From: a virus
Length of the DNA: 38,503 bases
Strand: one strand, 5' to 3'
Virus record (IMG/VR): IMGVR_UViG_3300042890_004156
Location: 1-38,503 of that record
Below are positions 4,543 through 28,508 of this stretch, piece after piece; position 1 is the first letter of the stretch; each line of letters starts with the position of its first letter. The translations under genes were made by a program, and so were the position numbers. The notes beneath the pieces were generated by a model. The model did no database searches, was not told the origin of the DNA, and worked only from the letters and a program-made list of their open reading frames with translations.

Positions 4543-4932
4543 ATGAAAATACATGAATTATTAGAAAACCACCATGGCTCGTTAGCACGAGACAACGGTG
4601 ATGTAATCACAATCGGTGATGCAAGAATTGATATTGATACTAAAGCACAGTTTTCACCTAGACCACAATCTGTTATTGAATTCTTAGTTCCTAAAGAATT
4701 ACGCGGACAAGGAATCGGAACACAGTTACTAACAAAAGCTGTAGCAAAGTATCCGATGTTAGGCGGACAAGTAAGCTCTATAGCATCGTTAAAAGTATTT
4801 TGGAATTTAGGGTTTAGAAATCCAAGAATGCCAGAAGCATCGTTTCAAGATCATGCTGATAGAATGAATGAATACAGTTCAGTGTTTATGGCACGTACTG
4901 ACGAACACGGAGTTCCATATGAAAATACATGA
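4543..4932 (+). CDS. GNAT-type N-acetyltransferase with capsid-targeting-like N-terminus
   Basis: A 129-aa protein. Residues 1-8 (MKIHELLE) match the shared M(K/R)IxE(L/I) peptide of this phage. The body is a small GNAT domain: the acetyl-CoA pyrophosphate loop is LRGQGIGTQLLTKAV (about 52-66), preceded by the strand VIEFLVP. GNAT enzymes transfer acetyl groups to amines of proteins, antibiotics or tRNA; the substrate is unknown here. It is first in a plus-strand operon with two other genes carrying the same N-terminal peptide, behind a late-type box. I infer a packaged effector, possibly injected with the DNA. Confidence 0.7.
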   Translation: MKIHELLENHHGSLARDNGDVITIGDARIDIDTKAQFSPRPQSVIEFLVPKELRGQGIGTQLLTKAVAKYPMLGGQVSSIASLKVFWNLGFRNPRMPEASFQDHADRMNEYSSVFMARTDEHGVPYENT

Positions 4933-5323
4933 AATAATCTCTGAAGAAATTAAAACAAGACTTGATGCCAAATGCTGGAAAGGAAAACATAAAGAAGGTA
5001 CTAAAGTAAAAGGCGGTGTTAGAGTTAACAACTGTGTGCCAAATGAATCAATGGATGAAACCGCAGCATGGCAGAAGAAATCAGGTAAGAATAAGAATGG
5101 TGGGTTAAATGCGAAAGGCGTTGCTAGCTATCGTAGAGAAAATCCTGGAAGTAAATTACAAACTGCAGTAACTACTAAACCAAGTAAACTTAAACCTGGA
5201 AGTAAAGATGCAAAACGCCGTAAGAGTTTTTGTGCAAGAATGGGCGGTATGGAAGGTCCTATGAAAGACGAAAAAGGTAAACCAACTAGAAAAGCATTAG
5301 CATTGAGAAAATGGAATTGCTAA
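4919..5323 (+). CDS. DUF6321-like basic protein with capsid-targeting-like N-terminus
   Basis: The start is ATG 4919 (MKIHEIISEE), inside the end of the GNAT gene, because it restores the shared N-terminal peptide; the longer frame from 4868 only shadows the GNAT gene. The remaining 120 residues are very basic and match a domain common in phages: KSGKNKNGGLNAKGVASYRR, then TTKPSKLKPGSKDAKRRKSF, CARMGGM and a final LRKWNC. I recognise this as the DUF6321 pattern, biochemical role unknown. High positive charge fits a DNA-associated internal head protein. There is no good Shine-Dalgarno, so coupling to the upstream gene is likely. Confidence 0.7.
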   Translation: MKIHEIISEEIKTRLDAKCWKGKHKEGTKVKGGVRVNNCVPNESMDETAAWQKKSGKNKNGGLNAKGVASYRRENPGSKLQTAVTTKPSKLKPGSKDAKRRKSFCARMGGMEGPMKDEKGKPTRKALALRKWNC

Positions 5324-5332
5324 ATTAAAATT

Positions 5333-6526
5333 ATGAAAATACAAGAAATTATAAGCGAAGCAATATCAGGTGCTCACTGGATACACGGATTGCACAATGG
5401 GTTAAATGATATTTTAGAACAACCGTTAGGACTTACATTTAACTTAGAAACTATAAATGGATTTAATGCCATTGCAGTATACCTTAAAGATATGTCCGAC
5501 GGCAGGATATGTAGTTTTTATGAGAAAATGCAACCTAGTGATATTATTTACATGTTAGAAGAGATAGTAAAGATAGCACATTATGTTATACAGCAGAAAT
5601 ATGCTAAAGTGTGCGCGGATGTAAGTGGAACAAACTTTTCTCATATTCAAATTCTACCTCAGTCTAATAATCCAGGAGCCCTCGCCTCGGCTGGTTATGA
5701 CTATGTAACATTCTATGAAACTGATAAGAATGCTTTCCAACATCAAGATATAGATATGCTAAAAGACTTGTTATATAGTACAGAAGCAATGACTGATGTT
5801 AACAGAGGATGGAGTAATGCTGAACAAAAGAATCTATATGTGCCTGTGATAACTGATATGTTTCAAATCGAACCTGCATTTAGAAATTTGAAACTAGGTG
5901 ATTTTAGTTTAGCTGAATTCTTCTTAGACACTAAAAACATAGATAATATGGTTCACGAATTAGTACATATTAGACAACACGCACCTCAATCTAGATATAA
6001 AACTAAACGAGTATTTGATAAAGATACTAAACAGCACAAATTGGTTACTAAACAAGGCACTGAATTTAGAAGTAAAGTAGAGCCAAATCAAGAAAAGTTT
6101 TATAATGCAATTAGAGATTTAGATAAGTCGCCTGAAAACTATAAAATATATAGTTCGTCGTTACAAGAAATACCAGCACATGCGCATGACGCTGCAGTTA
6201 GCGTTATACGTCATTTAGATTTTGCATGGGGCGGTTCGGTTGATGAATATGGCAGAGACGTGTCACATTTAAAATCTCAAGTAAAAGCACTTAAATTGAT
6301 TATTGCTAATTTGTCTAATGGACCAACCGCGTTAAAAGATGTTTATGGTCACCCGATTAAAATTAGAAGATTTGAATATTTCAGTAAGACATTTAATCAT
6401 CCTAAAGATAAAAAGTTATACCCGGTATATAAAAAATTTGTAAAAATAATGAGTCAAGAATTAATCAATTATTACAATTACTGGAATGAAAAACTTATTA
6501 ACCTTAGTAAATCAAATGGTCAATAA
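5333..6526 (+). CDS. Zincin-type metalloprotease-like protein with capsid-targeting-like N-terminus
   Basis: A 397-aa protein starting MKIQEIISEA. Around residue 205 it has VHELVHIRQH, an HExxH zinc-binding motif, and about 75 residues later SLQEIPAHAHD, whose Glu is a candidate third ligand, as in gluzincins. The N-terminal 190 residues are not recognised. A second, shorter protein with the same layout (N-terminal peptide, HEVTH, QPDEIAAYA) is encoded at 22148-22951. Possible roles are proteolysis inside the head or in the injected cell; both are inference. The gene ends at the terminator at 6525. Confidence 0.65.
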   Translation: MKIQEIISEAISGAHWIHGLHNGLNDILEQPLGLTFNLETINGFNAIAVYLKDMSDGRICSFYEKMQPSDIIYMLEEIVKIAHYVIQQKYAKVCADVSGTNFSHIQILPQSNNPGALASAGYDYVTFYETDKNAFQHQDIDMLKDLLYSTEAMTDVNRGWSNAEQKNLYVPVITDMFQIEPAFRNLKLGDFSLAEFFLDTKNIDNMVHELVHIRQHAPQSRYKTKRVFDKDTKQHKLVTKQGTEFRSKVEPNQEKFYNAIRDLDKSPENYKIYSSSLQEIPAHAHDAAVSVIRHLDFAWGGSVDEYGRDVSHLKSQVKALKLIIANLSNGPTALKDVYGHPIKIRRFEYFSKTFNHPKDKKLYPVYKKFVKIMSQELINYYNYWNEKLINLSKSNGQ

Positions 6527-10184: not shown

Positions 10185-10192
10185 GATAAATA
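10185..10192 (+). promoter_or_regulatory. T4-late-like promoter box GATAAATA
   Basis: GATAAATACAGTAT, 24 bases before the ATG at 10217. The same 13-base string GATAAATACAGTA precedes the RimK-like gene on the other strand at 26400. Confidence 0.6.
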
Positions 10193-10216: not shown

Positions 10217-10498
10217 ATGCATGAAGTATTTAAACTAATTGGAGAGTTAGGCTTTCCTATTGCAGTAGCATTTGCTGGTGGGTATTTCGTATACCTAACC
10301 ATTAAGCTATTGCTTGGCGGTGTATTAGGAAGTATCAAAGGAATGGCAGGTATTATCGTAGCATTAGATAACCGCGTTAAAACAATGAACCACGATGTAA
10401 TCCGTATAGACACTATTGTGTCTAATGCATTAGGGTTAAAACCTGATGTAGAACGGATATCACGTGCTGACGGAAAAAATGATGCGCGTCGAGACTAA
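10217..10498 (+). CDS. Single-pass membrane protein with coiled coil, 93 aa
   Basis: Residues 10-30 (GELGFPIAVAFAGGYFVYLT) form a membrane helix, followed by a second hydrophobic stretch and a heptad-like region ALDNRVKTMNHDVIRID. It is a paralogue of the 129-aa gene two places downstream: both share GFPI(A/V), a Gly-rich membrane helix and a matching D-R-(V/I)-x3-(N/D)-D-(V/L)-IR helix. The layout resembles BhlA/UviB-type holin-like proteins. I recall similar structural or membrane proteins in cyanophages, without known function. AGGAG precedes the ATG. Confidence 0.65.
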   Translation: MHEVFKLIGELGFPIAVAFAGGYFVYLTIKLLLGGVLGSIKGMAGIIVALDNRVKTMNHDVIRIDTIVSNALGLKPDVERISRADGKNDARRD

Positions 10499-10509
10499 AA
10501 GGAATTAAT

Positions 10510-10707
10510 ATGCATTACATAGATTATGTTTGGCAACTGTTTGAGTTTGGAATGATCTTAGATGAAGAGATTGATTTTGATAGTTTAGGATGGGAAGATG
10601 GTTCTTATTTTAGATTAGACCGTACAACTGATGGTAGTCGTCCAGTTTTAAGAAAAGTTAAAGTAATTAAAAAGTATACTCCCGGAGCAGAAAATGGATC
10701 CGAGTGA
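10510..10707 (+). CDS. Small conserved phage protein, 65 aa
   Basis: Starts MHYIDYVWQLFEFGMILDEE and contains the block LGWEDGSYFRLDRTTDG. I recall this small acidic protein type between the same two membrane-protein genes in T4-like marine phages. AAGGA lies before the ATG. Its end overlaps the next gene by 14 bases. No known function. Confidence 0.65.
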   Translation: MHYIDYVWQLFEFGMILDEEIDFDSLGWEDGSYFRLDRTTDGSRPVLRKVKVIKKYTPGAENGSE

Positions 10708-11083
10708 AATTGTAGCTGTTGTAAATAAATATGGTTTTCCTATTGTTATGGCAGTCGGAATGGGATATATTATACGTTATGTGTGGGAATGGTCTACTAA
10801 AGAAGTTAAACCAGTTTTAAGTGAAGCTAATACTGTATTAATTGCACTTATTGATCGTATTCGTATGTTAGATAATGATCTAATCAGATTAACTCAAAAG
10901 GTAAATACCGTATTACATTTACGTGGTAAGATTATTGAAAGTGATCGTGTACTTGAACAAGTTAAAGTAGAGCGTGAAGCATCTAAACAATTTGATAAAG
11001 CTGTTCGTATGGACGATCCTAAACCGCCAAAGAAGAAAGCAAAATCTGAAGATGATAATACTGCAGCAGCTGGAGAAAGTTAA
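10694..11083 (+). CDS. Membrane protein with coiled coil and basic tail, 129 aa
   Basis: Paralogue of the 10217 gene. The membrane helix is at about 12-32 (KYGFPIVMAVGMGYIIRYVW). Then comes VKPVLSEANTVLIALIDRIR and a long amphipathic helix DNDLIRLTQKVNTVLHLRGK, and a lysine-rich tail (PPKKKAKSEDD). Single helix plus coiled coil with a charged tail suggests a holin- or spanin-like or virion membrane-contact role; this is inference. Confidence 0.65.
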   Translation: MDPSEIVAVVNKYGFPIVMAVGMGYIIRYVWEWSTKEVKPVLSEANTVLIALIDRIRMLDNDLIRLTQKVNTVLHLRGKIIESDRVLEQVKVEREASKQFDKAVRMDDPKPPKKKAKSEDDNTAAAGES

Positions 11084-11085
11084 GA

Positions 11086-11328
11086 ATGAGAATAAGAGAG
11101 CTATTAGAAAGTATTGAATTAGATGAAACTAAAATACCAACTAGTAAAGAATTAAGAAAAGCGTTACTAAAAAAAGGTTATACTTCACATGAAGGTGGAG
11201 AACATGAGAAGTTTTATGCACCTGATAATTCGCATCATATTGCAATACCTCGTGGGTCGAGGGCGTTGAGTACCGGCCTTGCTCGATCTGCTATGAAAAA
11301 AGCCGGTATAACTGATGACGATTTATAG
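11086..11328 (+). CDS. HicA-like RNase-fold protein with capsid-targeting-like N-terminus
   Basis: An 80-aa protein. Residues 1-9 (MRIRELLES) carry the shared M(K/R)IxE(L/I) peptide. Residues 18-80 resemble HicA mRNA interferases: SKELRKALLKKGY, then GGEHEKFYAP with His in the usual catalytic GSH region, IAIPRGSRALSTGLARSAMK and KKAGI. HicA toxins cleave mRNA and normally pair with HicB; no hicB is present. With the N-terminal peptide it could be a toxin carried in the capsid and delivered on injection. It ends one base before the convergent cyclase gene. Confidence 0.7.
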   Translation: MRIRELLESIELDETKIPTSKELRKALLKKGYTSHEGGEHEKFYAPDNSHHIAIPRGSRALSTGLARSAMKKAGITDDDL

Positions 11329-11329
11329 C

Positions 11330-13378
11330 TTACTTTTCGTGGGCTACAAATTCTCCCTGCCAATCATCGCCTAGATCTTGATGTTTCATAAACTCACAAC
11401 GTTCAATCCACATTTTATAGTACTTGTCCATTTGACCGCCAAAACTGCCTTTCATCTTTTTACACATAGCAGCAGCATCATCAAATCGTTTTAGTTTATA
11501 TAATATATGCATCATATCATGTTGGTCTTTATCTTTACTGTAATCAGCACCTTTAGTACGTAATGCAGTATAGATTAAATCTGCAACAGTTTTACCTTTT
11601 GGTTGTAAGTTATCTAACATTAAGTAGAAGAAATCATCTTTAGTTCTATTGTATGTTTCTGCACCAATAATACATAGTACACCGTATGCTTTACAGCGTG
11701 CTTCTAACCTTGCAGCAGTTGATACCATGTCACCTAGAATATCATAGCTGTGTCTATCAGTAGAACCCATTTCTCCAATAAAGCCAATACCACTATTACA
11801 ACCCCAACCCATTGCAGCTGGCGGCAATCCTTGTTCTTCCATTACTTTAGTGTAAGCGTCTACTGCATCTAACATTTCTAAACCAACTTTAACAATAGTG
11901 CGAGCATGGTAATTGTCGTCAATTGGAGCACCGTGTATATGCATAGATGCATCTCCTACATACTTAATAACCATTCCGTTGTTATCTATAATAGGTCTAC
12001 TAATGCTATCCATGTAGCCATTCATGTACTTGCCAAGTCCTGCTACGTTATCACCGTAGTGTTCTCCGATTGGAGTAAACCCTCGCAAGTCACTAAACAT
12101 AACTGATACATCTTTACGCACCCCACGTTTAATTAGTTCCGGATCTTTTTGTAGCATTTCAACTACTTCTTTAGAGCAGTAACCTGCAAACTGTTTTTTA
12201 ATAGCTAGCTTCTGTGTTAGTTCAGAAACAAACTTAACAGTATAAGCATGAGCATACACAAGGCCAAATCCAGCCACAACAAACGTTGCATCCAGTAAAA
12301 TGCTATAATTGGTGAAAACATAGCTAGCAGCATAAGGAATGCCGCCGATAAACATAATAATAGGAATAAAGCCATAACGCCATCTCGTTAAAAATATAGA
12401 ACCAATAGCTAGTGCAATAAATGCTAATAGTTCTGCCCCATCTGCGTAGTCTGGTCTAACAATGTTAGTACCAGATACTAGTGTATCTAATACAGCACTT
12501 TGAAGTTCATGAGGAAACCGTTCCCCTGTAGCTGTTGCCACTGGGTTGTTGAGTCCTCTTGCGGTAAGACCAACAATAATGATTCTCCCTTCAAGGGAGT
12601 CTGGAAGACTAGTGATTGAATAGCTTGTGGGCTTATGTGACCAGTCAATCCAAATTCTACTGAACGGGTCGGTTGCAATTTTTCCAAACTTAGGTATTCT
12701 AACAGCTTCGACTCCGAGCTCTGAGATTTTAACTTGGAAACTTGGATCTCCACTCGCGACTCGTAAAGTGTCAAGTCCAAGTGACGGGTATAACTTTCCT
12801 TTTGATGATACAACCATTGGCATTCTTCGCACAACGCCATCGAGTTCTGGGAAAGTGTTAACAATACCAGCACCTGCAATAACATCGTTAAGTTGTTTAG
12901 TATTTGCTTGTATGTTTTCATAATTTACAGTAAATGGTTGATCTTCATTTCCTATTACACTAACACCTGGACGGAATGCAATAGTATCTGATTTTACAGG
13001 TTCATTAGTTGCTGTCTGTGGTAGTACAACAGGAGAAATTGAAATAACGTTAGCTAAGTCTGCATCTCTTTTAAATCTATCTGCATCTGGCATAAAGATA
13101 TTAAACACTACTAATCCTGCACCTCTAGCATATAAGTCTTCAATTATCTGTGCGTATATGTCGCGAGAGAACGGAAATTGCCCATACTTCTCTAATGCAG
13201 CATCATCTATGTTTACCGTAGTAACAGATGAGTCTTGTATTGGTTTACTTGTAATTAATGTATCAAAGTATCTTAGTCGCATACTTTCTACAAATGACGG
13301 ATCTGCGATACGTACACCCGCTACTAACATAACTGTTAGTAGCGCAGTCCAGGGGTTTAATAATATTTTTTTAATCAT
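11330..13378 (-). CDS. CHASE2-domain class III adenylate cyclase
   Basis: A 682-aa membrane enzyme. A membrane segment at about 8-24 is followed by an extracytoplasmic CHASE2 sensor (about 30-310), three membrane helices (about 312-380) and a cytoplasmic class III cyclase (about 415-600). Metal-binding Asp residues are in VSVMFSDLRGFTPIGE and KYVGDAS; the Lys of KYVGD and the Asp of SYDILGD fit ATP preference. The usual catalytic Asn of GDxVNxAARLE is Ser here (GDMVSTAARLE), so activity may be altered. The product would be cAMP. It is last in the 9.3-kb curli/PlcP/Agt operon, overlapping Agt by ATGA. Confidence 0.9.
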   Translation of the reverse strand: MIKKILLNPWTALLTVMLVAGVRIADPSFVESMRLRYFDTLITSKPIQDSSVTTVNIDDAALEKYGQFPFSRDIYAQIIEDLYARGAGLVVFNIFMPDADRFKRDADLANVISISPVVLPQTATNEPVKSDTIAFRPGVSVIGNEDQPFTVNYENIQANTKQLNDVIAGAGIVNTFPELDGVVRRMPMVVSSKGKLYPSLGLDTLRVASGDPSFQVKISELGVEAVRIPKFGKIATDPFSRIWIDWSHKPTSYSITSLPDSLEGRIIIVGLTARGLNNPVATATGERFPHELQSAVLDTLVSGTNIVRPDYADGAELLAFIALAIGSIFLTRWRYGFIPIIMFIGGIPYAASYVFTNYSILLDATFVVAGFGLVYAHAYTVKFVSELTQKLAIKKQFAGYCSKEVVEMLQKDPELIKRGVRKDVSVMFSDLRGFTPIGEHYGDNVAGLGKYMNGYMDSISRPIIDNNGMVIKYVGDASMHIHGAPIDDNYHARTIVKVGLEMLDAVDAYTKVMEEQGLPPAAMGWGCNSGIGFIGEMGSTDRHSYDILGDMVSTAARLEARCKAYGVLCIIGAETYNRTKDDFFYLMLDNLQPKGKTVADLIYTALRTKGADYSKDKDQHDMMHILYKLKRFDDAAAMCKKMKGSFGGQMDKYYKMWIERCEFMKHQDLGDDWQGEFVAHEK

Positions 13379-14379
13379 TTTATTTTTGGCACCAAGTTGT
13401 CTTTAAATATTTCCCAACAATTTTCCCAAGTCCATCTAAATGAACTTATATATACACGGTGTCTATCAAGTTTTAAACATTCTTCAATTGCTGTTTCTAA
13501 GTTAGTATCCATAATACCATTACGACCTTGTTCTATAATATCAATAGGACCTGGCACTGGATATGCAGCAACTGGACAACCTAACGACATTGCTTCAATT
13601 ATTACAATACCAAACGTATCAGCTGCACTTGGAAAAACAAATACATCAGCATTAACATAATAATCAGCTAACTCTGATCCTGACTTGTATCCTACAAATT
13701 CTACTAATGGATATTTCTTTTCTAATCGTTTACGATAAGGACCATCTCCTACAATTTGCACATGATACTTTTCGTTTTTAGATAATACACATAGATCATC
13801 TAATGATTTTTCTTTAGACACTCTGCCTACATATAGCAAAACAGTTTTGTCTGAATCTGCTTTGTGTGCAGTTGGTTGTAGTACATCTCTATCAACCCCG
13901 CGTGTCCATGGTATGACATTTGGTCTAAACTTATGTTCTTTAAGTTCTTCAACCATTGTTTGTGTAGTAGTTAATACTACAGTTGAATCTTTATGAAACC
14001 AACGCACGTATGCGTATGTAATCCATTTTGGTATTCCGTATATTTTTTTAATAAACTCAGGAAACTTTGTATGATAGGATGTATTATAGTTAAATTTACG
14101 ATTACGGCAATATCCACGAGCTGCTAGCCCAATTGGCCCTTCTGTGCAAATATGAATATAATCTGGATTGATCCTGTCAATCATTTTTCTAATACCAGAG
14201 GTACGGCTAAGTTTTACTTCTGGATATTTTGGAGCATCTATATAACGGAAATGACTAGGGTTTATAATTTCTATTTCATATCCGTTTAATTCTGCTTGTT
14301 TTTTTATATTAGTGAACGTAGTCACTACGCCGTTAACTTGATCAAACAAGTTGTCGGAAACTATTAAAATTTTTTTCAT
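13375..14379 (-). CDS. agt: GT4 glycosyltransferase of the Agt/SqdX lipid type
   Basis: A 334-aa GT-B glycosyltransferase. The N-terminal domain reads NGVVTTFTNIKKQAELNGYE, then HICTEGPIGLAARGYCRNRK and SYHTKFPEFI. The linker holds IPWTRGVDRDV, and the C-terminal nucleotide-sugar site reads LLYVGRVSKEKSLDD and SAADTFGIVIIEAM. This block order is typical of the diacylglycerol glycosyltransferases (Agt, MgtA, SqdX) that make glycolipids from the diacylglycerol released by PlcP during phosphate starvation. The plcP gene lies just upstream, separated only by a homing endonuclease. Acceptor specificity cannot be proven from sequence. Confidence 0.8.
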   Translation of the reverse strand: MKKILIVSDNLFDQVNGVVTTFTNIKKQAELNGYEIEIINPSHFRYIDAPKYPEVKLSRTSGIRKMIDRINPDYIHICTEGPIGLAARGYCRNRKFNYNTSYHTKFPEFIKKIYGIPKWITYAYVRWFHKDSTVVLTTTQTMVEELKEHKFRPNVIPWTRGVDRDVLQPTAHKADSDKTVLLYVGRVSKEKSLDDLCVLSKNEKYHVQIVGDGPYRKRLEKKYPLVEFVGYKSGSELADYYVNADVFVFPSAADTFGIVIIEAMSLGCPVAAYPVPGPIDIIEQGRNGIMDTNLETAIEECLKLDRHRVYISSFRWTWENCWEIFKDNLVPKIK

Positions 14380-14978
14380 TTGATTACCTTACAATTTTCA
14401 AAGTGCCAACGTTTCATAGAACTGTTTACTCCTGTTGTGTTGCAATGCGGGCAAGAGATATGTTGTCTATTTTGTTGAGAAGCAGACATTTTAGCTCTAG
14501 TTTCTATTGAGTGCGGTTTACCTGTATTATGTGCAGGTTTACCTGTTTTAATGCCTTTATTCCAAGCAGGCTTAGTTGCTTTGATTCCTTTATTTGGACC
14601 AGGTTTACCTTTCTTTGAATCACGTATTTTAGATTTAGTTTCTTCTGTACACGGTTTTCCTTGAACTGCTCCACTAATACCGTTTTCAGGTATTAAGTTA
14701 GCCCACTCTTTAGATTCTACTATATTATTTTCTTTTGAAAAGGTTAATGCAAATTCAGTTAACATAGTTTTATTTGTATATGGATCTGAAACCCAAATAG
14801 TTTCTACAAATTCCTTTCCGTGTGCAGTAATATGATTTTTCCAATGTTTTCCTGATCCTAAATATCTTTTAGGATCTTGAGAAGTAGTTTTGCCGAAATA
14901 TTTTAAACCTGTTACTGAATGTTGTTTGATATACAGATAAGTTGGTTTTATATCTATATAAATAATTGTGCTGGGCAT
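14376..14978 (-). CDS. GIY-YIG-type homing endonuclease with NUMOD3 repeats and zinc finger
   Basis: I use ATG 14978 because AAGGAGA lies 6 bases upstream; a longer frame starts at 14999. The 200-aa protein opens with YLYIKQH...LKYFGKTT and RYLGSGKHW, the GIY-YIG-like core seen in phage homing enzymes. NUMOD3-type repeats follow (EETKSKIRDSKKGKPGPNKG and related, about 112-165), then a C-terminal finger CPHCN...RWHFENC. Its stop overlaps the agt start (ATGA), so it is embedded in the operon between plcP and agt. Confidence 0.8.
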   Translation of the reverse strand: MPSTIIYIDIKPTYLYIKQHSVTGLKYFGKTTSQDPKRYLGSGKHWKNHITAHGKEFVETIWVSDPYTNKTMLTEFALTFSKENNIVESKEWANLIPENGISGAVQGKPCTEETKSKIRDSKKGKPGPNKGIKATKPAWNKGIKTGKPAHNTGKPHSIETRAKMSASQQNRQHISCPHCNTTGVNSSMKRWHFENCKVIK

Positions 14979-15013
14979 TAGTGTCTCCTTAGATAACATA
15001 TATAATGTTTAGT

Positions 15014-15050
15014 GCTAGTGGATGATAGTGCATCGCGACTAGCTTTTTTT
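15014..15050 (+). terminator. Terminator-like hairpin on the plus strand
   Basis: GCTAGT (15014-15019) pairs with ACTAGC (15038-15043), with an inner GATG/CATC pair, followed by seven T residues on the plus strand. All surrounding genes run on the minus strand, so this would stop antisense transcription or be a relic brought by the endonuclease insertion. Confidence 0.5.
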
Positions 15051-15066
15051 ATTTAGTAAATTGTTA

Positions 15067-15222
15067 TTATGATTTTGTACACTCGGCAGTAACTTTAAAC
15101 CAATCAAATTTTACTGTATATGTTAGTGATGATGCTACATGCACACACTCTTGTTCTGTAGGAAAAAACAATTTCATTCTTCCGGGTACGTCTGTTGGAT
15201 CGTGTATGTTAACTACTAGCAT
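15067..15222 (-). CDS. Hypothetical protein, 51 aa
   Basis: A 51-residue frame starting MLVVNIHDPTDVPGRMKLFF and ending VKFDWFKVTAECTKS. It overlaps the plcP end by 14 bases and has no clear Shine-Dalgarno, so it would be coupled. The alternating hydrophobic pattern and two cysteines look protein-like, but there is no recognised family. Confidence 0.45.
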   Translation of the reverse strand: MLVVNIHDPTDVPGRMKLFFPTEQECVHVASSLTYTVKFDWFKVTAECTKS

Positions 15223-15994
15223 TATTAATGTCCACATTACTTTTTATCTCCGTCCAGTATATAATTTCCCATTCACCTGTGTGGTGTTCAACTAATGCTG
15301 ACATAGATTCAACCCAGTCACCATCATTCATTAGTATAATGCTGTTAATCTCTTTAATAAGTGGTGTATGTGTATGTCCACATATTACACCGTCATAGTT
15401 TCTTTTTTTACAGTAGTCAGTTAAGTTAATCTCAAACTGAAAGATAAAATCTACAGCCTTCTTAACTTTATGTTTTAGGTATTTACTTAAACTCCAGTAT
15501 CCAAACCCTAACTTGTGACGCACCCAATTAAAATGATTATTAAGTCCTAAGATAAAGTCGTAGCCTTTATCACCTAAGAAACCTAACCATGGTGCTAATC
15601 TAGTTATACCGTCAAACAAGTCGCCGTGTGTAACTAAGTAACGCTTTCCATCTACGCCAATATGATCACACTGATTAACAATAGATATCTTTCCAAATGA
15701 TATTCCTAATCGTAGCATAGGTCTTAAAAATTCATCATGATTACCTGCTATGTAGATAACTTGAGTGTGTTGTCTTGAAATTTTTAAAAATCTACGTATG
15801 ATATCAGTATGGCTTTGTTTCCATCTTAGTTTATTTTGCTGAACTTTCCATCCATCTATAATGTCACCTACTAAGTATAGTGTTTCGCAAGTGTTATGTT
15901 TAAGGAAGTCGTTAAGTTGTTCTGCTTTACAATCTCGAGTACCTAAGTGTATATCCGAGATAAAGATTGATTTATAAGTTTTAAGTTTTTTCAT
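15209..15994 (-). CDS. plcP: PlcP-type metallophosphoesterase (phospholipase C)
   Basis: A 261-aa calcineurin-like phosphoesterase with all metal motifs: FISDIHLGTRDC, YLVGDIIDGW, AGNHDEFL, VTHGDLFDG and CGHTHTP. Outside the motifs it matches the alphaproteobacterial family often labelled UDP-2,3-diacylglucosamine pyrophosphatase but shown to include PlcP: LGFLGDKGYDFILGLNNHFN, GYWSLSKYLKHKVKKAV and NDGDWVESMSALVEHH. PlcP removes phospholipid headgroups under phosphate limitation, and Agt then adds sugars. The neighbouring agt gene strongly favours PlcP over LpxH. It is soluble, without signal peptide. Confidence 0.8.
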   Translation of the reverse strand: MKKLKTYKSIFISDIHLGTRDCKAEQLNDFLKHNTCETLYLVGDIIDGWKVQQNKLRWKQSHTDIIRRFLKISRQHTQVIYIAGNHDEFLRPMLRLGISFGKISIVNQCDHIGVDGKRYLVTHGDLFDGITRLAPWLGFLGDKGYDFILGLNNHFNWVRHKLGFGYWSLSKYLKHKVKKAVDFIFQFEINLTDYCKKRNYDGVICGHTHTPLIKEINSIILMNDGDWVESMSALVEHHTGEWEIIYWTEIKSNVDINNASS

Positions 15995-15995
15995 A

Positions 15996-16313
15996 TTATT
16001 TTTGATGACTCTCTAATGCAGAAATACGCCATTCTAAAACTTTAACTGAACTTTTATTTTCTGCAGAACGTTCAATGTTTTCAGTTTGCAAGGTTAATAA
16101 ATCTTGACGTAGTTTTTCACGAGCTAGATCTAATATGTTATTCATTTCGTGTAATGCATCAGCAGTAACTATAGTTTGATTTTTTGCCTCTAACATAGTA
16201 ATGCGTTCATTAGCACTGGACAATGAGTTAATTAAATACACTATACACGAGAATAAGATTGGTATTAGTGCAAACATTATCTTTTCAATAAGTGCGCCTC
16301 TTGAAGTTTCCAT
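15996..16313 (-). CDS. Membrane-anchored coiled-coil protein, 105 aa
   Basis: Residues 9-30 (IEKIMFALIPILFSCIVYLI) form a membrane helix. The rest is a long charged helix with heptad character (ITMLEAKNQT...DLAREKLRQDLLTLQTENIE...VLEWRISALE). I recall homologous single-pass coiled-coil proteins in T4-like cyanophages, function unknown. AAGGA precedes the ATG. Its place between the curlin genes and plcP suggests an envelope role, but that is context only. Confidence 0.6.
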   Translation of the reverse strand: METSRGALIEKIMFALIPILFSCIVYLINSLSSANERITMLEAKNQTIVTADALHEMNNILDLAREKLRQDLLTLQTENIERSAENKSSVKVLEWRISALESHQK

Positions 16314-16361
16314 ATTAATTCCTTATTTACATTTTAATTTCCTAATAGCCTTAACTAAAAG

Positions 16362-17519
16362 TTATTGCCCTTGTTGTACTTGAATTGGTGCGCATCCTCC
16401 TACTGTAGCACAATTAAAGTTTATTGAGTAATACTGTTGAGTAGCACCACTTTGTTGTAAACTTAAATCTACTGGTTGTCCTGATAGTTTAATATCAGTC
16501 ATGTGATTTGCTGAACCCTGTTGTAATACATTAACATGTTTATTACCACCAGATAATTCAATATTAGCATAATAATTTCCACTACCCTTTTGTTGTAAAA
16601 TTAAACTGTTGTTATTATCAGTTATATTTATAAAAGCACCTTTACTAAACCCGGCAGTATATGTATCTTGATCTATACTAAGCAAATTAGAATTGCCATT
16701 TACTGTTAAGTCAATAAAGTTTACTTGTAAGTTATTGGCTGCAGTTTGATTAATAGTAGTAGTGTTAGACGAGCCATTACTGCTGTAATTTACATAATTG
16801 TTGTTAGTACCTTTTTGATCAATTGTAATCTTGTTATTGTTTCCTAACTGATCTATATATACTTGATTGTTAGTAGTTGATCTAGATGTAAAAGCCGTTA
16901 CTTTTGCAGTATTAGCAGGAGCGGCATTAAATGAAGATCCACTGCCACCGCAGCAATATACACTTGGAAACGTAGTCCATGGTAACGTACTTCCTAAGTC
17001 AATGCTAGTAGTAGGATCATTTTGATCGTACAAGAATGTTATTTCTGCAATTTGCATAGAGTTAGCAGCACCTGCGTCTTTAACAATTGGAAACGTTATA
17101 TTATAATACACGTATGCTTTTGTATTGTCAATTGGGTATACTGGACTAACTGCAAGTCTATTATTAGGTAATGCAATAAGTTGAGAAGTTATTAACGTCC
17201 AACCTCCTGATGTATCATTACTTCCAAATAAACTAAAACTAGCAGGATCTCGTTCTGGAGAATCATTTGCTGTAGTAAATTGTACTTGACTAATAACTTT
17301 ACCTTGTGACAGTTTAAGCATAACACCTGCACTAAGTTTATCAAAGTTAAGATACTTAGTTCCGGGATTACCGTCAAACGCATTACTAAAGAACTCACCA
17401 CCTGGACTATTCATACTTGATGGAATATATCCTAACATTAATGGTCTAAGTGGTACATAGTTAGGAACAGCATCTACATTTGAATACCATAACAACAATA
17501 TGAAAAATAAAATTCTCAT
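16362..17519 (-). CDS. Secreted curlin-repeat protein with discoidin-like domain
   Basis: A 385-aa protein with a signal peptide (MRILFFILLLWYSNVDA). Residues about 30-170 form an F5/8-type C (discoidin-like) domain: NAFDGNPGTKYLNF, FTTANDSPERDPASFSLFGS and SMQIAEITFL, a fold that often binds sugars. The C-terminal 170 residues carry curlin-type strands of the form (V/I)xIDQxGNNNxI, including VYIDQLGNNNKITIDQKG, plus later LQQKGSGN and LQQGSANH units. These Asn/Gln-rich repeats build curli amyloid. It could give the fibre a glycan-binding element. It overlaps the FecR gene by ATGA. Confidence 0.75.
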   Translation of the reverse strand: MRILFFILLLWYSNVDAVPNYVPLRPLMLGYIPSSMNSPGGEFFSNAFDGNPGTKYLNFDKLSAGVMLKLSQGKVISQVQFTTANDSPERDPASFSLFGSNDTSGGWTLITSQLIALPNNRLAVSPVYPIDNTKAYVYYNITFPIVKDAGAANSMQIAEITFLYDQNDPTTSIDLGSTLPWTTFPSVYCCGGSGSSFNAAPANTAKVTAFTSRSTTNNQVYIDQLGNNNKITIDQKGTNNNYVNYSSNGSSNTTTINQTAANNLQVNFIDLTVNGNSNLLSIDQDTYTAGFSKGAFINITDNNNSLILQQKGSGNYYANIELSGGNKHVNVLQQGSANHMTDIKLSGQPVDLSLQQSGATQQYYSINFNCATVGGCAPIQVQQGQ

Positions 17520-18601
17520 CGTCTTAACACTCCGGTAGTTTGTGTAATACTTATTGTATTACCGCCACTGCTGTCGCCTATCATTGTAGATGCAGCAGTA
17601 TCATTTTGAATAATAGATATAGCAGTATTAGAAGTATACCCTTGTGTTTTTATTTCAGCATAGTGTTCATCTGGGGTTATACGATATGCAGTACCTTTAC
17701 CTTTTTGTGTACCGTCTGCATTAGGTTGTTCCCACATTACACATACATGCGATGTTGGGTCGCAAGGTGCAATAGATTGTATAGTTTCTGCAATCTGTTC
17801 TATTCTAGCAGCAATAGTTTCTTGAGTTTTAGCTACTTGATTTGCTAATCGTCTAGTTGCTTCTTTTTCTAAATCTTCTTGTTCTTCATCTTTCTTTGTT
17901 CTAGCTGCTTGTTTAATTGCGTTAACAATTTCTTTTGGCGCAGAAATGATTAAGTTATTATTGATTTTAGATTCTACCAAACTAATAACTTCCGGAGCAG
18001 TTGGCATTGCAGTTCTACTACTAACATAAGTTGCATGAAACGCTTGCTCTAAGGTTACTTCACCTGCATCGTTTGTAACTACAATTTTACCAACTTTACA
18101 TATATTCTCTTGTAGCTCGTATTGTTTAACATCTTTTTCATCTTTACAACTTGGAAGTAGTACAATAAGAGATTGGCCAGTTTCATCTACTGTCATGGTA
18201 AAGTCAGTACCACGTACTGCAATTGTAGCAGTAGGAGTTTGAATACCTACTTGCTGTGGATTAGCTTTTGCTATTTGCCCACTTGCATATCTAACAGTAC
18301 CTAATCCAACTTTTAATGCAAGTTTACCTGCATCTGATTGTTTTGGATCGTATACAAAGTCATCTATTACTAATCTACTATTCTCTGTAATTTTAACTTT
18401 TGTTTCATCTTTAAATAGAATGTTACTAACACACCCGCCGGTAATGTACGCATCCATACTTTCTATAGATGCGCCTTTATCACCTGCAAGTTTTTCTTTG
18501 TTACGTTCAATGCTGCATGCAGTGCCTTTAGCGTCTGAAACTGCACCAATTCCTGCATAAGCATTATTAACAACTAATAATAAAAAAACTAAGAACCACA
18601 T
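17516..18601 (-). CDS. FecR-domain secreted protein with curlin-like tail
   Basis: A 361-aa protein. The signal peptide is MWFLVFLLLVVNNAYA. A FecR domain covers about 30-150 (GCVSNILFKDETKVKITENS, VGLGTVRYASGQIAK and TPTATIAVRGTDFTM). A charged helical region follows (about 215-270), and the C-terminus holds a single curlin-like unit (NTAISIIQND...GGNTISITQTTG). FecR domains occur in envelope signalling and are often encoded next to CHASE2 cyclases in bacteria. It lies between two curlin genes, with a CHASE2 cyclase at the end of the operon. GAGGT precedes the ATG. Confidence 0.8.
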   Translation of the reverse strand: MWFLVFLLLVVNNAYAGIGAVSDAKGTACSIERNKEKLAGDKGASIESMDAYITGGCVSNILFKDETKVKITENSRLVIDDFVYDPKQSDAGKLALKVGLGTVRYASGQIAKANPQQVGIQTPTATIAVRGTDFTMTVDETGQSLIVLLPSCKDEKDVKQYELQENICKVGKIVVTNDAGEVTLEQAFHATYVSSRTAMPTAPEVISLVESKINNNLIISAPKEIVNAIKQAARTKKDEEQEDLEKEATRRLANQVAKTQETIAARIEQIAETIQSIAPCDPTSHVCVMWEQPNADGTQKGKGTAYRITPDEHYAEIKTQGYTSNTAISIIQNDTAASTMIGDSSGGNTISITQTTGVLRR

Positions 18602-18602
18602 A

Positions 18603-19370
18603 TTACCTCGAAACGGCTGTATTTGAATTTACAATACTGCTTGAATTAGTTGACCTTACAGTAATTGTATTATGATCTCCAATTGTACTAATATCTATCA
18701 TAGAATCGTTAGTACCTTGCTGCTGTGTTACAACAGAGTTATAACTCCCAGTAAAATCTTGTACTAGATGATGCCCAATACCTCCATCGTCTTGTTCGTT
18801 AATGAAACTGTTAAACCCACCACTTACTGTTGTATCTACTACACCGTTAGTGCTATTTAATCGTGTTGTAACTTCATTGTTACTGCCATTAATATCAATT
18901 GTACTATGTATGCTACCTTTAGTTAAACTTTGTATAACATAGTTTAAATCACCAGTAATTGTTTCAGTAACAACATTAGCATTTACTGGAGTACCAAGTC
19001 CAATGTTAAGTAACGTTTGATTTTGATTACCTTTAATGATACTAGAATATATATTATTTGCTCCGCTAATATTATATTGTGCCCAGTTAGTATCTCCAGT
19101 GTGCGACAATGTTACTTGGTTAGAATTACCCGTAATAGTCGCATAATTTGATGAGCTTGCAGTAGCTGGTACAAACGATATAATAGTGTTACTAGAACTG
19201 TATAGTAAAGGAACATTAAGTGCTGTGCCACCGACATTATTTCCTCCGCCAATTTGATCAATAACGATTGTATTTGCATTTCCAACTTGTTCAATGTATA
19301 CATTGTTTACTCCTGTACTTGCTGCAAACACTGGACTACTTATTAGTAGTAGTAGTATTAGTTGTTTCAT
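18603..19370 (-). CDS. Curlin-repeat protein (CsgA/CsgB-like)
   Basis: A 255-aa protein with a signal peptide (MKQLILLLLISSPVFAAS). It then has Asn/Gln-rich beta repeats starting NVYIEQVGNANTIVIDQIG and continuing with units such as ITGNSNQVTLSHTGDTN and STIDINGSNNEVTTRLNS to the C-terminus. These match the GxN/QxG logic of curlin subunits, though more degenerate than E. coli CsgA. It should be exported through the CsgG pore. The start lies inside the end of csgG (35-base overlap) and has AGGAG 6 bases upstream. Confidence 0.75.
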   Translation of the reverse strand: MKQLILLLLISSPVFAASTGVNNVYIEQVGNANTIVIDQIGGGNNVGGTALNVPLLYSSSNTIISFVPATASSSNYATITGNSNQVTLSHTGDTNWAQYNISGANNIYSSIIKGNQNQTLLNIGLGTPVNANVVTETITGDLNYVIQSLTKGSIHSTIDINGSNNEVTTRLNSTNGVVDTTVSGGFNSFINEQDDGGIGHHLVQDFTGSYNSVVTQQQGTNDSMIDISTIGDHNTITVRSTNSSSIVNSNTAVSR

Positions 19371-20190
19371 TTTTTAGCTCCTGTGGCGCTTCTCTAAACG
19401 TCCAATGACCTTTCTTAGCACCTTCTTTAATAGTTTCGACCACAGCGGCTTGAATAGCTTTGTTAGTCGCTTTGTTAATACTTTCATTTATACTTCCGCC
19501 CACTTCTGTTTCTAATGCTTTAGTATCTGAAGAGAACATTTTTAAGACACCAACTTTATCCATATAACTTAGTACAGTTTTAGTTACTACAACTGATGTT
19601 AGAATTTCACCAGATGTTACTGATACTATACGCACGCTCACTGTTACTGTATCGCTTTGATATTGTGTTTCGCCACCTATGCCAAATATCCTTACACCTG
19701 CTCCGCCTGTGATTGTATTTGAATCGTAGCCAACTACTGCGCCTTCTGCAATAATTCCGGCAAACGTCATAGCAGGTAAAATAGTTGCATCTTTGCCTTG
19801 AAACTGTTCGCGTGTTTGGCGAATCATTTGACGCTCTTTAACTAGGTTGTCTAAGCCAACGCGTTCTAGTACTACAAACCAGCGACTATCACCGACTTCT
19901 TTTAATGACTTGATTAAATAGTTTTCAGCACCTTGAGTAATTGCAGAACTTAAACTAGCAATGTTTGGTATTGATTTGCGTTGTCCAGTTTTATCCGTAA
20001 AACCGTATACTGCAATTGGAATAGGTCCACCTTGCGGCGGAGCTAAATAATTTTCTTCTTTTTTTAAATACGGTGTATTATCAACGATTGGATCGTCAAA
20101 CTGTTCACCTGTTATAAGTTTTTCAATTGAACTACTTGCTGCACATCCTTGTAGTAGTAGAATAATTGCTAATAATAGTAATTTTTTCAT
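19336..20190 (-). CDS. csgG: CsgG-like curli secretion pore lipoprotein
   Basis: A 284-aa protein. The lipobox LLLQGC (about 11-16) marks lipidation after signal peptide II cleavage. CsgG signatures follow: IPIAVYGFTDKTGQRK, the amphipathic region SRWFVVLERVGLDNLVKERQ and ILPAMTFAGIIAEGAVVGYD. The pore hairpin region GVRIFGIGGETQYQSDTVTV comes next, then MDKVGVLKMF. CsgG forms a nonameric outer-membrane channel that secretes curlin. The C-terminus ends in a Thr/Asn-rich tail. Directly follows csgF with GAGGT before the ATG. Confidence 0.9.
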   Translation of the reverse strand: MKKLLLLAIILLLQGCAASSSIEKLITGEQFDDPIVDNTPYLKKEENYLAPPQGGPIPIAVYGFTDKTGQRKSIPNIASLSSAITQGAENYLIKSLKEVGDSRWFVVLERVGLDNLVKERQMIRQTREQFQGKDATILPAMTFAGIIAEGAVVGYDSNTITGGAGVRIFGIGGETQYQSDTVTVSVRIVSVTSGEILTSVVVTKTVLSYMDKVGVLKMFSSDTKALETEVGGSINESINKATNKAIQAAVVETIKEGAKKGHWTFREAPQELKNETTNTTTTNK

Positions 20191-20197
20191 AGTTACC

Positions 20198-20674
20198 TCA
20201 AAAATAGAAAGTACCGGCCGGTACTTTCATTGTTGTTGTTTGATTTGGATTACTATTACTTGTAATATTGATAATAATTAGTCCATTATCTGTACCTGAT
20301 CCTAATCCCCATGTAACCGTGTTTCCACCTAAGTCTGGAATATTTCCACAAGTTGCACCTGGGATAGTACATGTAGACCCTTCGGCAAACATGCTATCAG
20401 TAAGTTGTTTTGCTAGTTGTGAATAGATCCTTGATTCTAAGTTTGCTAAGAATTTAGCCGCTGGCGTATTAGCTGCTGCTGATGCTGCTTTAGCTGCTAA
20501 TGAATCTGCAAGTGATTTGTTTTTTTCAACACCTTGTTGTTCTAACTGCTGGATAGTTAGAATGTGATTGCTATACCCAATTCCGCTAAATGATGGACTA
20601 TTAAATGAGTGTTGGAGTTCAGCAGAAAATGCTGATGATGATACTAGTAGTAATAATACTAAGATTTTGTTCAC
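20198..20674 (-). CDS. csgF: CsgF-like curli assembly factor
   Basis: A 158-aa protein starting at GTG 20674 with AAGGAG 8 bases upstream. The signal peptide is MNKILVLLLLVSSSAFSA; the mature N-terminus ELQHSFNSPSFSGIGYSNHI matches the CsgF segment that plugs the CsgG pore. A helical middle (KNKSLADSLAAKAASAAANT) and a beta C-terminus ending MKVPAGTFYF complete the fold. CsgF couples the pore to curlin nucleation. It is first in the 9.3-kb operon, behind a late-type GTAAATA box. Confidence 0.85.
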   Translation of the reverse strand: MNKILVLLLLVSSSAFSAELQHSFNSPSFSGIGYSNHILTIQQLEQQGVEKNKSLADSLAAKAASAAANTPAAKFLANLESRIYSQLAKQLTDSMFAEGSTCTIPGATCGNIPDLGGNTVTWGLGSGTDNGLIIINITSNSNPNQTTTMKVPAGTFYF

Positions 20675-20777: not shown

Positions 20778-21572
20778 ATGAGAATCAATGAATTACTTGA
20801 AGGTGACCAAATAGGTCTTCCATTTCAAAATGAACCAGATTTACCACAAACACAAGTAAAATCAAAACATAAACGCGTTAACAAAGATCATGGACAAACA
20901 CCTGCACGTTACGAGCTACCGTTTACTTTAGAAAAACATCCAAAATTACAAGCAGCAGCTAAAGAAGTTGAAGCAGGGACTATGTCTAGAGCTGAATACA
21001 CTGCGTTAGTAAAGAAATATAAACCAGTAAGACCGTATGATTATATTCCAACACCTGCATCAGAAAAAGATATGAATCGTGGATTAGACGTAGATAAACG
21101 CGAACTTATTAATTCGCCTATCCAAGATGGTGAACCTGTGCAATTACGATTAGATATTCCTGCATACAATCATAAAAATGTGTGGGTTCCAACAATTCAT
21201 AATAAAGCAGGAATATCTATTTCGCATAGAGGTGCAGCAGTTATTAATAATGTTACTGTTAAATTACCACAAAAAGGAACATTAAATATTGCAACCGGTA
21301 AAACTCATAAAACTCCAATAGCTACTATAAAAGGATTTTGGGAAGAAACATCTCCTGAAGATGCATTTAAGCAAGCAAATGAAGCATTGCATGATAAAAG
21401 CTGGGCGCAAGTAGGAATGGATCCAAAACGTCATGCATTTTTCTATGATAGAAAAACAGAACAACCTATTATAGGCGGTAGTCGTGTAATACAAATAGGA
21501 GCATTAGTTTTAATTAAAGATCCAGTATACGACGATGATGGTGAATATATTTATGAAAGATCAAAAAGATAA
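20778..21572 (+). CDS. Polyvalent-type phage protein with capsid-targeting-like N-terminus
   Basis: A 264-aa protein starting MRINELLEGDQ, the shared N-terminal peptide. The C-terminal half reads LRLDIPAYNHKNVWVPTIHN, TPIATIKGFWEE, WAQVGMDPKRHAFFYDRKTE and IGALVLIKDPVY. I recognise this pattern from domains of large phage and mobile-element polyvalent proteins, where it accompanies enzymes injected with DNA; its activity is not known to me. AAGGA precedes the ATG. The acidic, proline-rich N-terminal third is poorly conserved in appearance. Confidence 0.65.
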   Translation: MRINELLEGDQIGLPFQNEPDLPQTQVKSKHKRVNKDHGQTPARYELPFTLEKHPKLQAAAKEVEAGTMSRAEYTALVKKYKPVRPYDYIPTPASEKDMNRGLDVDKRELINSPIQDGEPVQLRLDIPAYNHKNVWVPTIHNKAGISISHRGAAVINNVTVKLPQKGTLNIATGKTHKTPIATIKGFWEETSPEDAFKQANEALHDKSWAQVGMDPKRHAFFYDRKTEQPIIGGSRVIQIGALVLIKDPVYDDDGEYIYERSKR

Positions 21573-21585
21573 ATAATAGTAACAA

Positions 21586-21686: not shown

Positions 21687-21688
21687 GA

Positions 21689-22120
21689 CTAGCGATCAAT
21701 GTATTTTGCAAGATTATCGTAATAACTCATTGGTACTTTTTTACTGCGTGGTCTTTCTTTTCTAGGATCATTAGGATCTTTTACCTTTACAGGTTTATTA
21801 AGTTTTGCAATATCAGCGTCTATTCTTGCTTGCTTTCTTTTTGCTAGTTCTTCTGGACTATTAAGTGCAGCTTTTCTTTCTTGTTCAGCTTTTCTAAGAG
21901 CAGCTTTTTCTTCAGCTTCTTTCTTTTTCTCAAGCCAAATACGTTTTTCTTTTTTAGTTAATCCACTAGGCGGTTTATTTGGATCTGTAGGTGTTTTGTA
22001 TTGTGCTTTTAATTGGCGTGATTGTTTACCAATTTCTTTTTCAGAAGGTTTTAACATATTATGATCTTTGTTCATTAATGCTAGTTCTTTATCTGAAAAC
22101 ATAATTTCGTTTATTTTCAT
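21689..22120 (-). CDS. Basic coiled-coil protein with capsid-targeting-like N-terminus
   Basis: A 143-aa protein starting MKINEIMFSDKE. The rest is highly charged and helical, dominated by Lys, Glu and Ala (KKEKRIWLEKKKEAEEKAAL, RKAEQERKAALNSPEELAKR), with a net basic charge. No enzymatic motif. It resembles an internal head or DNA-binding protein in composition. A TATAAATA box lies 24 bases upstream and AGGA before the ATG. Confidence 0.6.
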   Translation of the reverse strand: MKINEIMFSDKELALMNKDHNMLKPSEKEIGKQSRQLKAQYKTPTDPNKPPSGLTKKEKRIWLEKKKEAEEKAALRKAEQERKAALNSPEELAKRKQARIDADIAKLNKPVKVKDPNDPRKERPRSKKVPMSYYDNLAKYIDR

Positions 22121-22144
22121 ATTTTAATTCCTATGATGCTACTC

Positions 22145-22152
22145 TATTTATA
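22145..22152 (-). promoter_or_regulatory. T4-late-like promoter box TATAAATA
   Basis: A perfect TATAAATA on the minus strand overlapping the stop codon of the upstream zincin gene (22148-22150), 24 bases before the ATG at 22120. Confidence 0.6.
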
Positions 22153-22951
22153 AACTAGACTTATAATCGTCTAAATGTTGATAGATTGATTTTAAGTATC
22201 TACGATACACTTGTTCATAGCCTGGTTTGGTTCTACCTTTAAAATCACTGTAAGGAATTGGCTGTTTTGATATTTCTTTTAAGAATACACCAATAGCAGT
22301 TGATTGTTCTTGAGGCGATAGTTTGTGAATTTTACCAATTAAGTCTGATGCAGTTTCCTGTGCGTATGCTGCAATTTCATCAGGTTGTGATTTATATATT
22401 TCTCTAGCACGTAATTGTTCTTCTTCACTGTTAAATTCATCTTGTATCAATGCTGTAAAGAATTTAATTTTATCTTTTTCAATATACCCATGTTTATATT
22501 CATATCGTTGCCCGTGACTTACTTGTGTAGCATGTGTTACTTCGTGTAAGAATACAGAAGTCAAATGGTTAATAATAGTGTTAACATCGGCTTCGTTAAT
22601 TTTATCAGTGTAGTGTTTAAATAACAATGAAATTAATTTTGCAATTACTTTAGGAGCAATTGTTATAGTATTTGAGTCTTCAAGATATTGGCCAGTTCCT
22701 TGCGCTAGTGATTTGAACTGTATAGTAACATCAGTATTTGTTATTTGTTTTGCGTAGTGTGTCAGTATAGGTTTAATAGCATTTACAAACAATGTATTGT
22801 ATTTGACCATAAACTGCATATCCATTTTACTTACAGGAGTTTGTGGCAAGGTATTAAACACATTTATAATAGCTCTGTGTAGTGTATTGTTAATTTCTGG
22901 AGAAAGTGATGATAACGATATACGTTCGATTAACAGTTCTTTAATTTTCAT
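22148..22951 (-). CDS. Second zincin-type protein with capsid-targeting-like N-terminus
   Basis: The start is set at ATG 22951 (MKIKELLIERIS), which gives the shared N-terminal peptide and an AGGA upstream; a longer frame from 23017 would run through the promoter. The 267-aa protein has FLHEVTHATQVSHG (about 142-155), an HExxH metal site, and QPDEIAAYAQETA about 50 residues later as a likely third-ligand segment. This parallels the 397-aa protein at 5333. Substrate unknown; a role in the head or after injection is inference. Confidence 0.65.
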   Translation of the reverse strand: MKIKELLIERISLSSLSPEINNTLHRAIINVFNTLPQTPVSKMDMQFMVKYNTLFVNAIKPILTHYAKQITNTDVTIQFKSLAQGTGQYLEDSNTITIAPKVIAKLISLLFKHYTDKINEADVNTIINHLTSVFLHEVTHATQVSHGQRYEYKHGYIEKDKIKFFTALIQDEFNSEEEQLRAREIYKSQPDEIAAYAQETASDLIGKIHKLSPQEQSTAIGVFLKEISKQPIPYSDFKGRTKPGYEQVYRRYLKSIYQHLDDYKSSL

Positions 22952-26400: not shown

Positions 26401-26404
26401 ACTG

Positions 26405-26412: not shown

Positions 26413-26426
26413 AGTATTTAAACACT

Positions 26427-27939: not shown

Positions 27940-27947
27940 TTGGGCTC

Positions 27948-28495: not shown

Positions 28496-28508
28496 TTAAA
28501 GTGTTATA

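What the first reader, a model, noticed from the sequence alone, without database searches (positions are those of the whole stretch)
11086..11328. HicA-like toxin carrying the putative packaging peptide, without a HicB antitoxin
Seen: an 80-aa protein with HicA-like blocks including the His region, preceded by MRIRELLES, and no adjacent hicB. Inferred: a toxin stored in the capsid away from the producing cell's cytoplasm and delivered at infection would not need an antitoxin and could shut off host translation at once.
Basis: partly seen in the sequence, partly recalled or inferred. Interest (0 to 1): 0.72.

Follow-up and report, generated by a model that had tools for sequence, protein, structure and literature searches.

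The report
Phage HicA toxin with capsid-targeting leader
A giant phage carries an RNA-cutting-toxin gene of the HicA family with no antitoxin, and the protein begins with a short tag that, by every sequence test available, looks like the T4-style address label that loads proteins into the virus head for injection into the next cell.

Summary
Window 11086-11328 encodes an 80-aa protein; residues 21-75 pass Pfam's HicA_toxin cut-off. The predicted fold is the HicA αβββα, whose six best PDB matches are all HicA proteins, and His40 aligns with the HicA catalytic His. No HicB was detected next to it or in any of five related records.

The "packaging peptide" reading is strengthened. The phage belongs to the RaK2-like/T4-related jumbo group, and its 372-kb relatives encode a T4 gp21-type prohead protease. 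In two of them 17 and 14 genes start with the same leader, against 0.1-0.3 expected, on 21 unrelated protein bodies. In 15 of 17, [L/I]-x-E, the T4 gp21 cleavage motif, falls at the expected place, against 65 of 487 other genes (p=3e-11). Leader genes are enriched for a T4-like late promoter.

Best reading: an injected, antitoxin-free HicA effector loaded by a T4-type capsid targeting sequence. Packaging is well supported by inference. Ribonuclease action and virion presence are untested. New variant of a known kind.

The parts
11086..11328 (+). hicA-like gene, 80 aa (whole finding)
11086..11109 (+). codons 1-8 MRIRELLE: proposed capsid targeting sequence; proposed prohead-protease cut after Glu8 (LLE|S)
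   Evidence: leader shared by 31 proteins in 21 body families; [LI]xE enrichment p=3e-11; conserved as ..E[LI]LE[SG].. in relatives
11146..11310 (+). HicA domain (residues 21-75), dsRBD-like fold
   Evidence: Pfam hit, fold match 1whz/6g26/5yrz/4p78/6hpb/4c26
11203..11205 (+). codon of His40, predicted catalytic His (GGEH)
   Evidence: aligned to His in 1whz and 4p78; invariant in relatives
10185..10192 (+). GATAAATA, T4-like late-promoter box upstream of the operon that ends with hicA
   Evidence: GATAAATA is among the most enriched upstream 8-mers in the related genome; window sites
10217..10498 (+). operon gene 1: small membrane protein, phrog_18771, weak holin/YvrJ similarity
10510..10707 (+). 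operon gene 2: 65 aa, unknown
10694..11083 (+). operon gene 3: membrane/coiled-coil paralogue of gene 1; ends 2 bases before hicA; not a HicB
4543..4932 (+). same leader (MKIHELLE|N) on a GNAT-like acetyltransferase; late box at 4528
4919..5323 (+). same leader (MKIHEIISE|E) on a DUF6321 protein
5333..6526 (+). same leader (MKIQEIISE|A) on a 397-aa protein with an HExxH-type motif
20778..21572 (+). same leader (MRINELLE|G), 264 aa unknown; late box at 20747
21689..22120 (-). leader-like start (MKINEIMF..), 143 aa unknown, no clear LxE; late box at 22152 (-)
22148..22951 (-). same leader (MKIKELLIE|R) on a metallopeptidase-like protein (HEVTH); late box at 22979 (-)

Best explanation
This is a virion-packaged, antitoxin-free HicA-type ribonuclease effector of a RaK2-like jumbo phage. 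It is transcribed late, at the end of an operon behind a T4-like late promoter. Its first 8-9 residues (MRIRELLE|S) act as a T4-type capsid targeting sequence that draws it into the prohead core. The phage's gp21-type prohead protease removes the leader, leaving a 72-residue HicA domain in the mature head. It is ejected with the DNA into the next host cell, where the HicA domain cuts mRNA at the start of infection. SHOWN by computation: HicA family, fold and catalytic His, no detectable HicB, a shared leader, the cleavage-motif enrichment, the protease gene in close relatives, and the late-promoter association. INFERRED: packaging, cleavage, ejection, RNase activity, and mRNA as target. How the producing cell tolerates the toxin (late synthesis, rapid capture, or masking by the uncleaved leader) is open.
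For: HicA. Conservation with leader in 12 contigs and few amino-acid relative to silent changes. Leader real: 17 and 14 gene starts in two 372-kb relatives against 0.26 and 0.12 expected; 0/1444 and 2/1451 internal Met; 31 proteins in 21 unrelated body families, including kinase-like, protease-like and HNH-like bodies. Cleavage motif: 15/17 vs 65/487, p=3e-11; relatives of HicA change LLES to ILEG/LLEG, keeping [LI]xE|small residue; the MCP N-terminus has LME|S before the conserved shell sequence in this lineage, and most RaK2-like phages compared have a similar site. gp21-type protease E=5e-26 in relatives. A small protein between portal and protease genes, where T4 keeps its core-protein genes 67/68, starts in related style (MKLVELFEA, MKLTELFN, MILRELF). 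Late box upstream of leader genes: 5/17 vs 28/487, p=0.003; second genome p=0.0009; hicA operon and four other leader genes in the window. T4 precedent: the first 10 residues of IPIII suffice for packaging, processing depends on residues 8 and 10, and fused nucleases were packaged (PMC9026906).
Against: No virion proteomics was readable for this phage or any leader-bearing relative. The leader pattern was drawn from the window's own peptides, and the two test genomes are relatives. The hicA late box is three genes upstream and degenerate in relatives (AAATAAATAC, CTAAATAC). The well-studied RaK2-like phage CBB has no such leader, so the exact sequence is not general to the group. Enzymatic activity is untested; a His that I recall as usual in HicA proteins after the third strand (PrH) reads PRG here. 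Packaging does not by itself remove toxicity in the producing cell.
Confidence: 0.55

Rival explanations
1. Packaged and injected, but not a killer of host mRNA: the HicA domain works as an RNA-binding or decoy protein, for example binding host HicB or blocking a host RNA-based or toxin-antitoxin defence, much as T4 internal protein I inhibits a restriction enzyme.
For: Same packaging evidence as above. T4 internal proteins include defence inhibitors (PMC9026906, PMC3012670). Lack of an antitoxin is easier to tolerate if activity is weak.
Against: The catalytic His and GxxH context are invariant, which suggests that catalysis is kept.
Confidence: 0.2
2. Not packaged: HicA acts late in the producing cell, as part of the membrane/curli/cyclase module at 10217-20674, for example by degrading mRNA near lysis. 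The leader has some other localising role.
For: hicA is the last gene of an operon of holin-like membrane proteins. That module without hicA is present in Methylophilales phage Melnitz and Pelagibacter phage HTVC008M, where a lysis-timing role was proposed for the curli genes (PMC9004378).
Against: The leader is shared with 20 other body families, most of them outside this module, and carries the prohead-protease motif; the module occurs in other phages without hicA.
Confidence: 0.17
3. Degenerating orphan of a hicAB pair picked up from a host, with no present function.
For: No HicB.
Against: Conserved ORF, position and leader in 12 contigs, with few amino-acid changes relative to silent changes.
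Confidence: 0.05

Closest known systems
HicA toxins of HicAB type II toxin-antitoxin systems (PF07927; PDB 1whz, 6g26, 4p78, 5yrz, 6hpb, 4c26)
   Same: HMM match over cut-off, alpha-beta-beta-beta-alpha dsRBD-like fold, catalytic His context
   Different: No HicB gene in any record searched; a roughly 16-residue N-terminal extension absent from most of the solved structures, whose residues 0-2 align with residues 14-19 here
T4 internal head proteins (IPI, IPII, IPIII) and Alt, targeted by a capsid targeting sequence (PMC9026906, PMC3012670)
   Same: Short N-terminal leader shared by unrelated proteins, [LI]xE-type cleavage site, gp21-type protease in the phage lineage, T4-like late promoters
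   Different: The cargo is a toxin-antitoxin ribonuclease domain; the leader is slightly shorter and different in sequence; virion presence not demonstrated
Predicted injected phage RNase toxins: MuF-fused and polyvalent-protein PBECR domains (PMC5512222)
   Same: Idea of an RNase delivered with phage DNA
   Different: Different fold and delivery signal; here a free-standing 80-aa HicA with no MuF, portal or polyvalent architecture; HicA is not mentioned in that paper's main text
Ordinary phage-borne hicAB, e.g. locus L013
   Same: HicA domain in a viral contig
   Different: L013 has a HicB-like gene 36 bases downstream and no leader

Membership tests
HicA family (PF07927) | profile match above the curated cut-off | tested here: met
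   32.4 bits vs 27
[quoted passage not shown]
   AF2 model and PDB matches, ranks 1-6 all HicA
HicA family (PF07927) | catalytic His in the GSH/GxxH turn | tested here: met
   His40 aligned, invariant
HicA family (PF07927) | ribonuclease activity and toxicity | not testable with these tools
   needs bench assay
HicAB toxin-antitoxin module | adjacent hicB antitoxin gene | tested here: not met
   neighbours are not HicB; PF15919 and PF05534 absent
T4-type CTS-bearing internal head protein | short N-terminal leader shared by otherwise unrelated proteins of the phage | tested here: met
   31 proteins, 21 body families; shuffles give 0.1-0.3 per genome
T4-type CTS-bearing internal head protein | gp21-type cleavage motif [LI]xE| at the end of the leader | tested here: met
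   LLE|S here; 15/17 leaders vs 65/487
T4-type CTS-bearing internal head protein | prohead protease of the gp21 family in the same phage | tested here: inconclusive
   present in both 372-kb relatives; this window is a 38.5-kb fragment without the head genes
T4-type CTS-bearing internal head protein | late expression | tested here: inconclusive
   late box upstream of the operon and enrichment at leader genes; box degenerate in relatives
T4-type CTS-bearing internal head protein | presence in virions, cleaved at the leader | not testable with these tools
   needs virion mass spectrometry
MuF / polyvalent injected toxin | MuF, portal or multi-domain polyvalent architecture | tested here: not met
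   single 80-aa protein, only HicA above cut-off

The most novel reading that the evidence does not exclude
A group of jumbo phages tags a whole arsenal of some 20 different proteins (kinase-like, protease-like, acetyltransferase-like and HNH-like proteins, and a HicA toxin) with one T4-type capsid targeting sequence and injects them with the genome. HicA would be a toxin-antitoxin ribonuclease converted into an injected weapon by swapping its antitoxin for a packaging tag.
Probability: 0.5. Interest if true: 0.8.

Novelty: new variant of a known kind. Interest (0 to 1): 0.62.

Why it matters
Toxins of toxin-antitoxin systems are usually thought to need an antitoxin wherever they are made. A HicA whose HicB has been replaced by a capsid address label would show another way to carry such a toxin and would make a phage use of it as an injected weapon directly testable. 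The leader itself is a readable, genome-wide tag: it predicts which of the many unknown proteins of these jumbo phages are carried in the head and enter the host first, a long-standing gap for jumbo phages.

Tried and rejected
tblastn of the protein in 50,697 phage records: no match. NCBIfam: no match. A profile search of viral contigs found no further distant relatives with the leader. CBB virion proteomics as an independent test of the leader: CBB lacks this leader. It has another shared N-terminus (MLPF.R..EYG) on proteins of which seven are in its published virion list, but several of these have kelch or laminin-G domains and may be whisker or fibre proteins, so I did not count this as support. 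Atu_ph07 has 7 leader-like starts and 131 virion proteins are reported (PMC6102473), but the list is in a supplement that I could not read. Cyanophages Syn19 and ACG-2014f: no obvious leader of this type in the stretches looked at. Membrane neighbour as a non-HicB antitoxin: possible in principle, but its homologues occur in phages without hicA (Melnitz and HTVC008M were judged by annotation and by the failed tblastn). A text search of the mBio 2024 survey of HicA contexts (PMC10865869) showed no passage on a solitary phage HicA with a leader; I did not read the whole paper.

Full report
WHAT IS THERE. The ORF at 11086-11328 (+) is real and 80 aa long, beginning MRIRELLES. Residues 21-75 match Pfam HicA_toxin above the curated cut-off and PHROG 353 'toxin'. 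An AlphaFold2 model from eight related sequences (pLDDT 81) has a short helix at residues 3-8, a linker, then alpha-beta-beta-beta-alpha. The six best PDB entries are all HicA-family structures (VIA Z 8.2 to 5.3, next row 3.6). For most of them residues 0-2 align at residues 14-19 here, so the first 16 or so residues are an extension that these HicA proteins do not have. His40 in GGEH aligns with the His of 1whz, His28 of 4p78, and the position that is Ala in 4c26/6g26, which I recall as H24A mutants.

CONSERVATION AND CONTEXT. Twelve viral contigs encode the protein at 71-97% identity, with the leader wherever the start is covered. Nei-Gojobori estimates give far fewer amino-acid than silent changes per site over the whole gene. 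In 11 loci examined plus the window, the same small genes precede it and the last of them ends 2 bases upstream. What follows is variable: a convergent adenylate-cyclase gene or a GIY-YIG-like ORF. No gene nearby resembles HicB, and PF15919 and PF05534 are absent from all five records. The one ordinary phage HicA in the same scan has a HicB-like ORF just downstream and no leader.

WHICH PHAGE. The window record is a 38.5-kb viral fragment. Two relatives are 372 kb. They carry a gp23-type major capsid protein, 66-70% identical to those of Sinorhizobium phage Phosso, Vibrio phage 2.275.O, GAP32 and CBB, that is, RaK2-like jumbo phages of the T4 superfamily, and a gp21-type prohead protease.

THE LEADER. 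In relative G001, 17 gene starts fit the pattern M[KR]-hydrophobic-x-[ED]-hydrophobic-hydrophobic; 0.26 are expected from shuffled proteins, and 0 of 1444 later Met positions fit. In G002, 14 fit against 0.12 expected, and 2 of 1451 later Met. These 31 proteins fall into 21 body families with no detected similarity after residue 15, including GNAT-like, metallopeptidase-like, kinase-like and HNH-like proteins (several assignments rest on weak matches or on motifs seen by eye). Homologues of some bodies in other phages lack the leader. So the leader is a detachable tag.

CLEAVAGE MOTIF. In 15 of 17 leaders an [LI]xE lies within residues 6-16, against 65 of 487 other genes (p=3e-11). T4 gp21 cuts after Glu in such a context: T4 leaders of 10-19 residues are removed by gp21, processing depends on residues 8 and 10 of the IPIII leader, and 'LIE' is named as conforming to the gp21 logo (PMC9026906). 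The capsid protein of G001 reads ..YLME|SPTAGATSAGN.. and most other RaK2-like capsid proteins compared show a similar site. In the HicA relatives LLE|S becomes ILE|G or LLE|G, keeping the motif. The small protein encoded between portal and protease genes, where T4 has its core genes 67/68, starts in related style in several of these phages.

TIMING. GATAAATA, close to the T4 late-promoter box, is among the most enriched upstream 8-mers in G001. It is over-represented directly upstream of leader genes (5/17 vs 28/487, p=0.003; G002 p=0.0009), and several of the other genes behind it look like tail genes by size and position. In the window it precedes four leader genes and the operon that ends with hicA (10185). 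In relatives the operon's box is degenerate.

MECHANISM. By the T4 precedent the leader would direct HicA into the prohead core, be cut off after Glu8, and leave a 72-residue HicA in the head to be ejected with the DNA. T4 leaders carried foreign proteins including nucleases into heads, and cargo into cells (PMC9026906). HicA enzymes cut mRNA (established knowledge), so the simplest function is early mRNA attack in the new host. Packaging is supported by several largely independent lines. Activity, target and benefit are inference. The weak step is tolerance in the producing cell, which packaging alone does not settle.

LIMITS. The leader pattern was taken from this window before being tested on relatives, so the genomes are not fully independent; the 21 unrelated bodies and the Met controls reduce that concern. 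No proteomics exists for a leader-bearing member that I could read. CBB, which has published virion proteomics, lacks this leader.

KNOWN OR NEW. HicA proteins, T4 capsid targeting sequences and predicted injected RNases (PMC5512222) are all known. The literature searches run here turned up no report of a HicA carried on a capsid targeting sequence without HicB, but coverage was limited to open papers and text matches. I therefore call it a new variant of a known kind.

Noticed in passing
window 4543-6526, 20778-22951; G001 and G002 genome-wide: The same leader is on about 20 other protein families, including three kinase-like and three HExxH-containing proteins in G001: a candidate injected effector set.
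   Followed up: partly
window 10217-20674: Two holin-like genes, CHASE2-type cyclase, curlin-repeat proteins, FecR-like protein and CsgG-like protein form a module shared with Methylophilales phage Melnitz and Pelagibacter phage HTVC008M; here the curli part is inverted and hicA sits at the junction.
   Followed up: partly
window 25519-30473: ClpS-like, Hsp20-like and DnaK genes in a row, and next to them a heme-oxygenase-like ORF (27101-27637) and a RimK-like ATP-grasp ORF (25519-26400); judged by eye only.
   Followed up: no
L001, L005-L007, L011, L012 and L002-L004, downstream of hicA: A GIY-YIG-like ORF (homing endonuclease candidate) lies between hicA and the cyclase remnant in several relatives, inserted at nearly the same point and of two different kinds.
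   Followed up: no
Pectobacterium phage CBB 344368-355464 and 173132-173866: CBB has another shared N-terminus, MLPF.R..EYG, on at least nine clustered proteins, seven of them in its published virion list; may be a fibre or whisker anchor or another targeting peptide.
   Followed up: partly
G001 upstream regions: A second enriched motif, around TTTGCTATAATAT, precedes other genes but none of the 17 leader genes: a likely early promoter.
   Followed up: no
G001 319-360 kb: Many small paralogous proteins beginning M(D/N/T)YD.AWLYC or MRLLTSNAER, unknown function.
   Followed up: no
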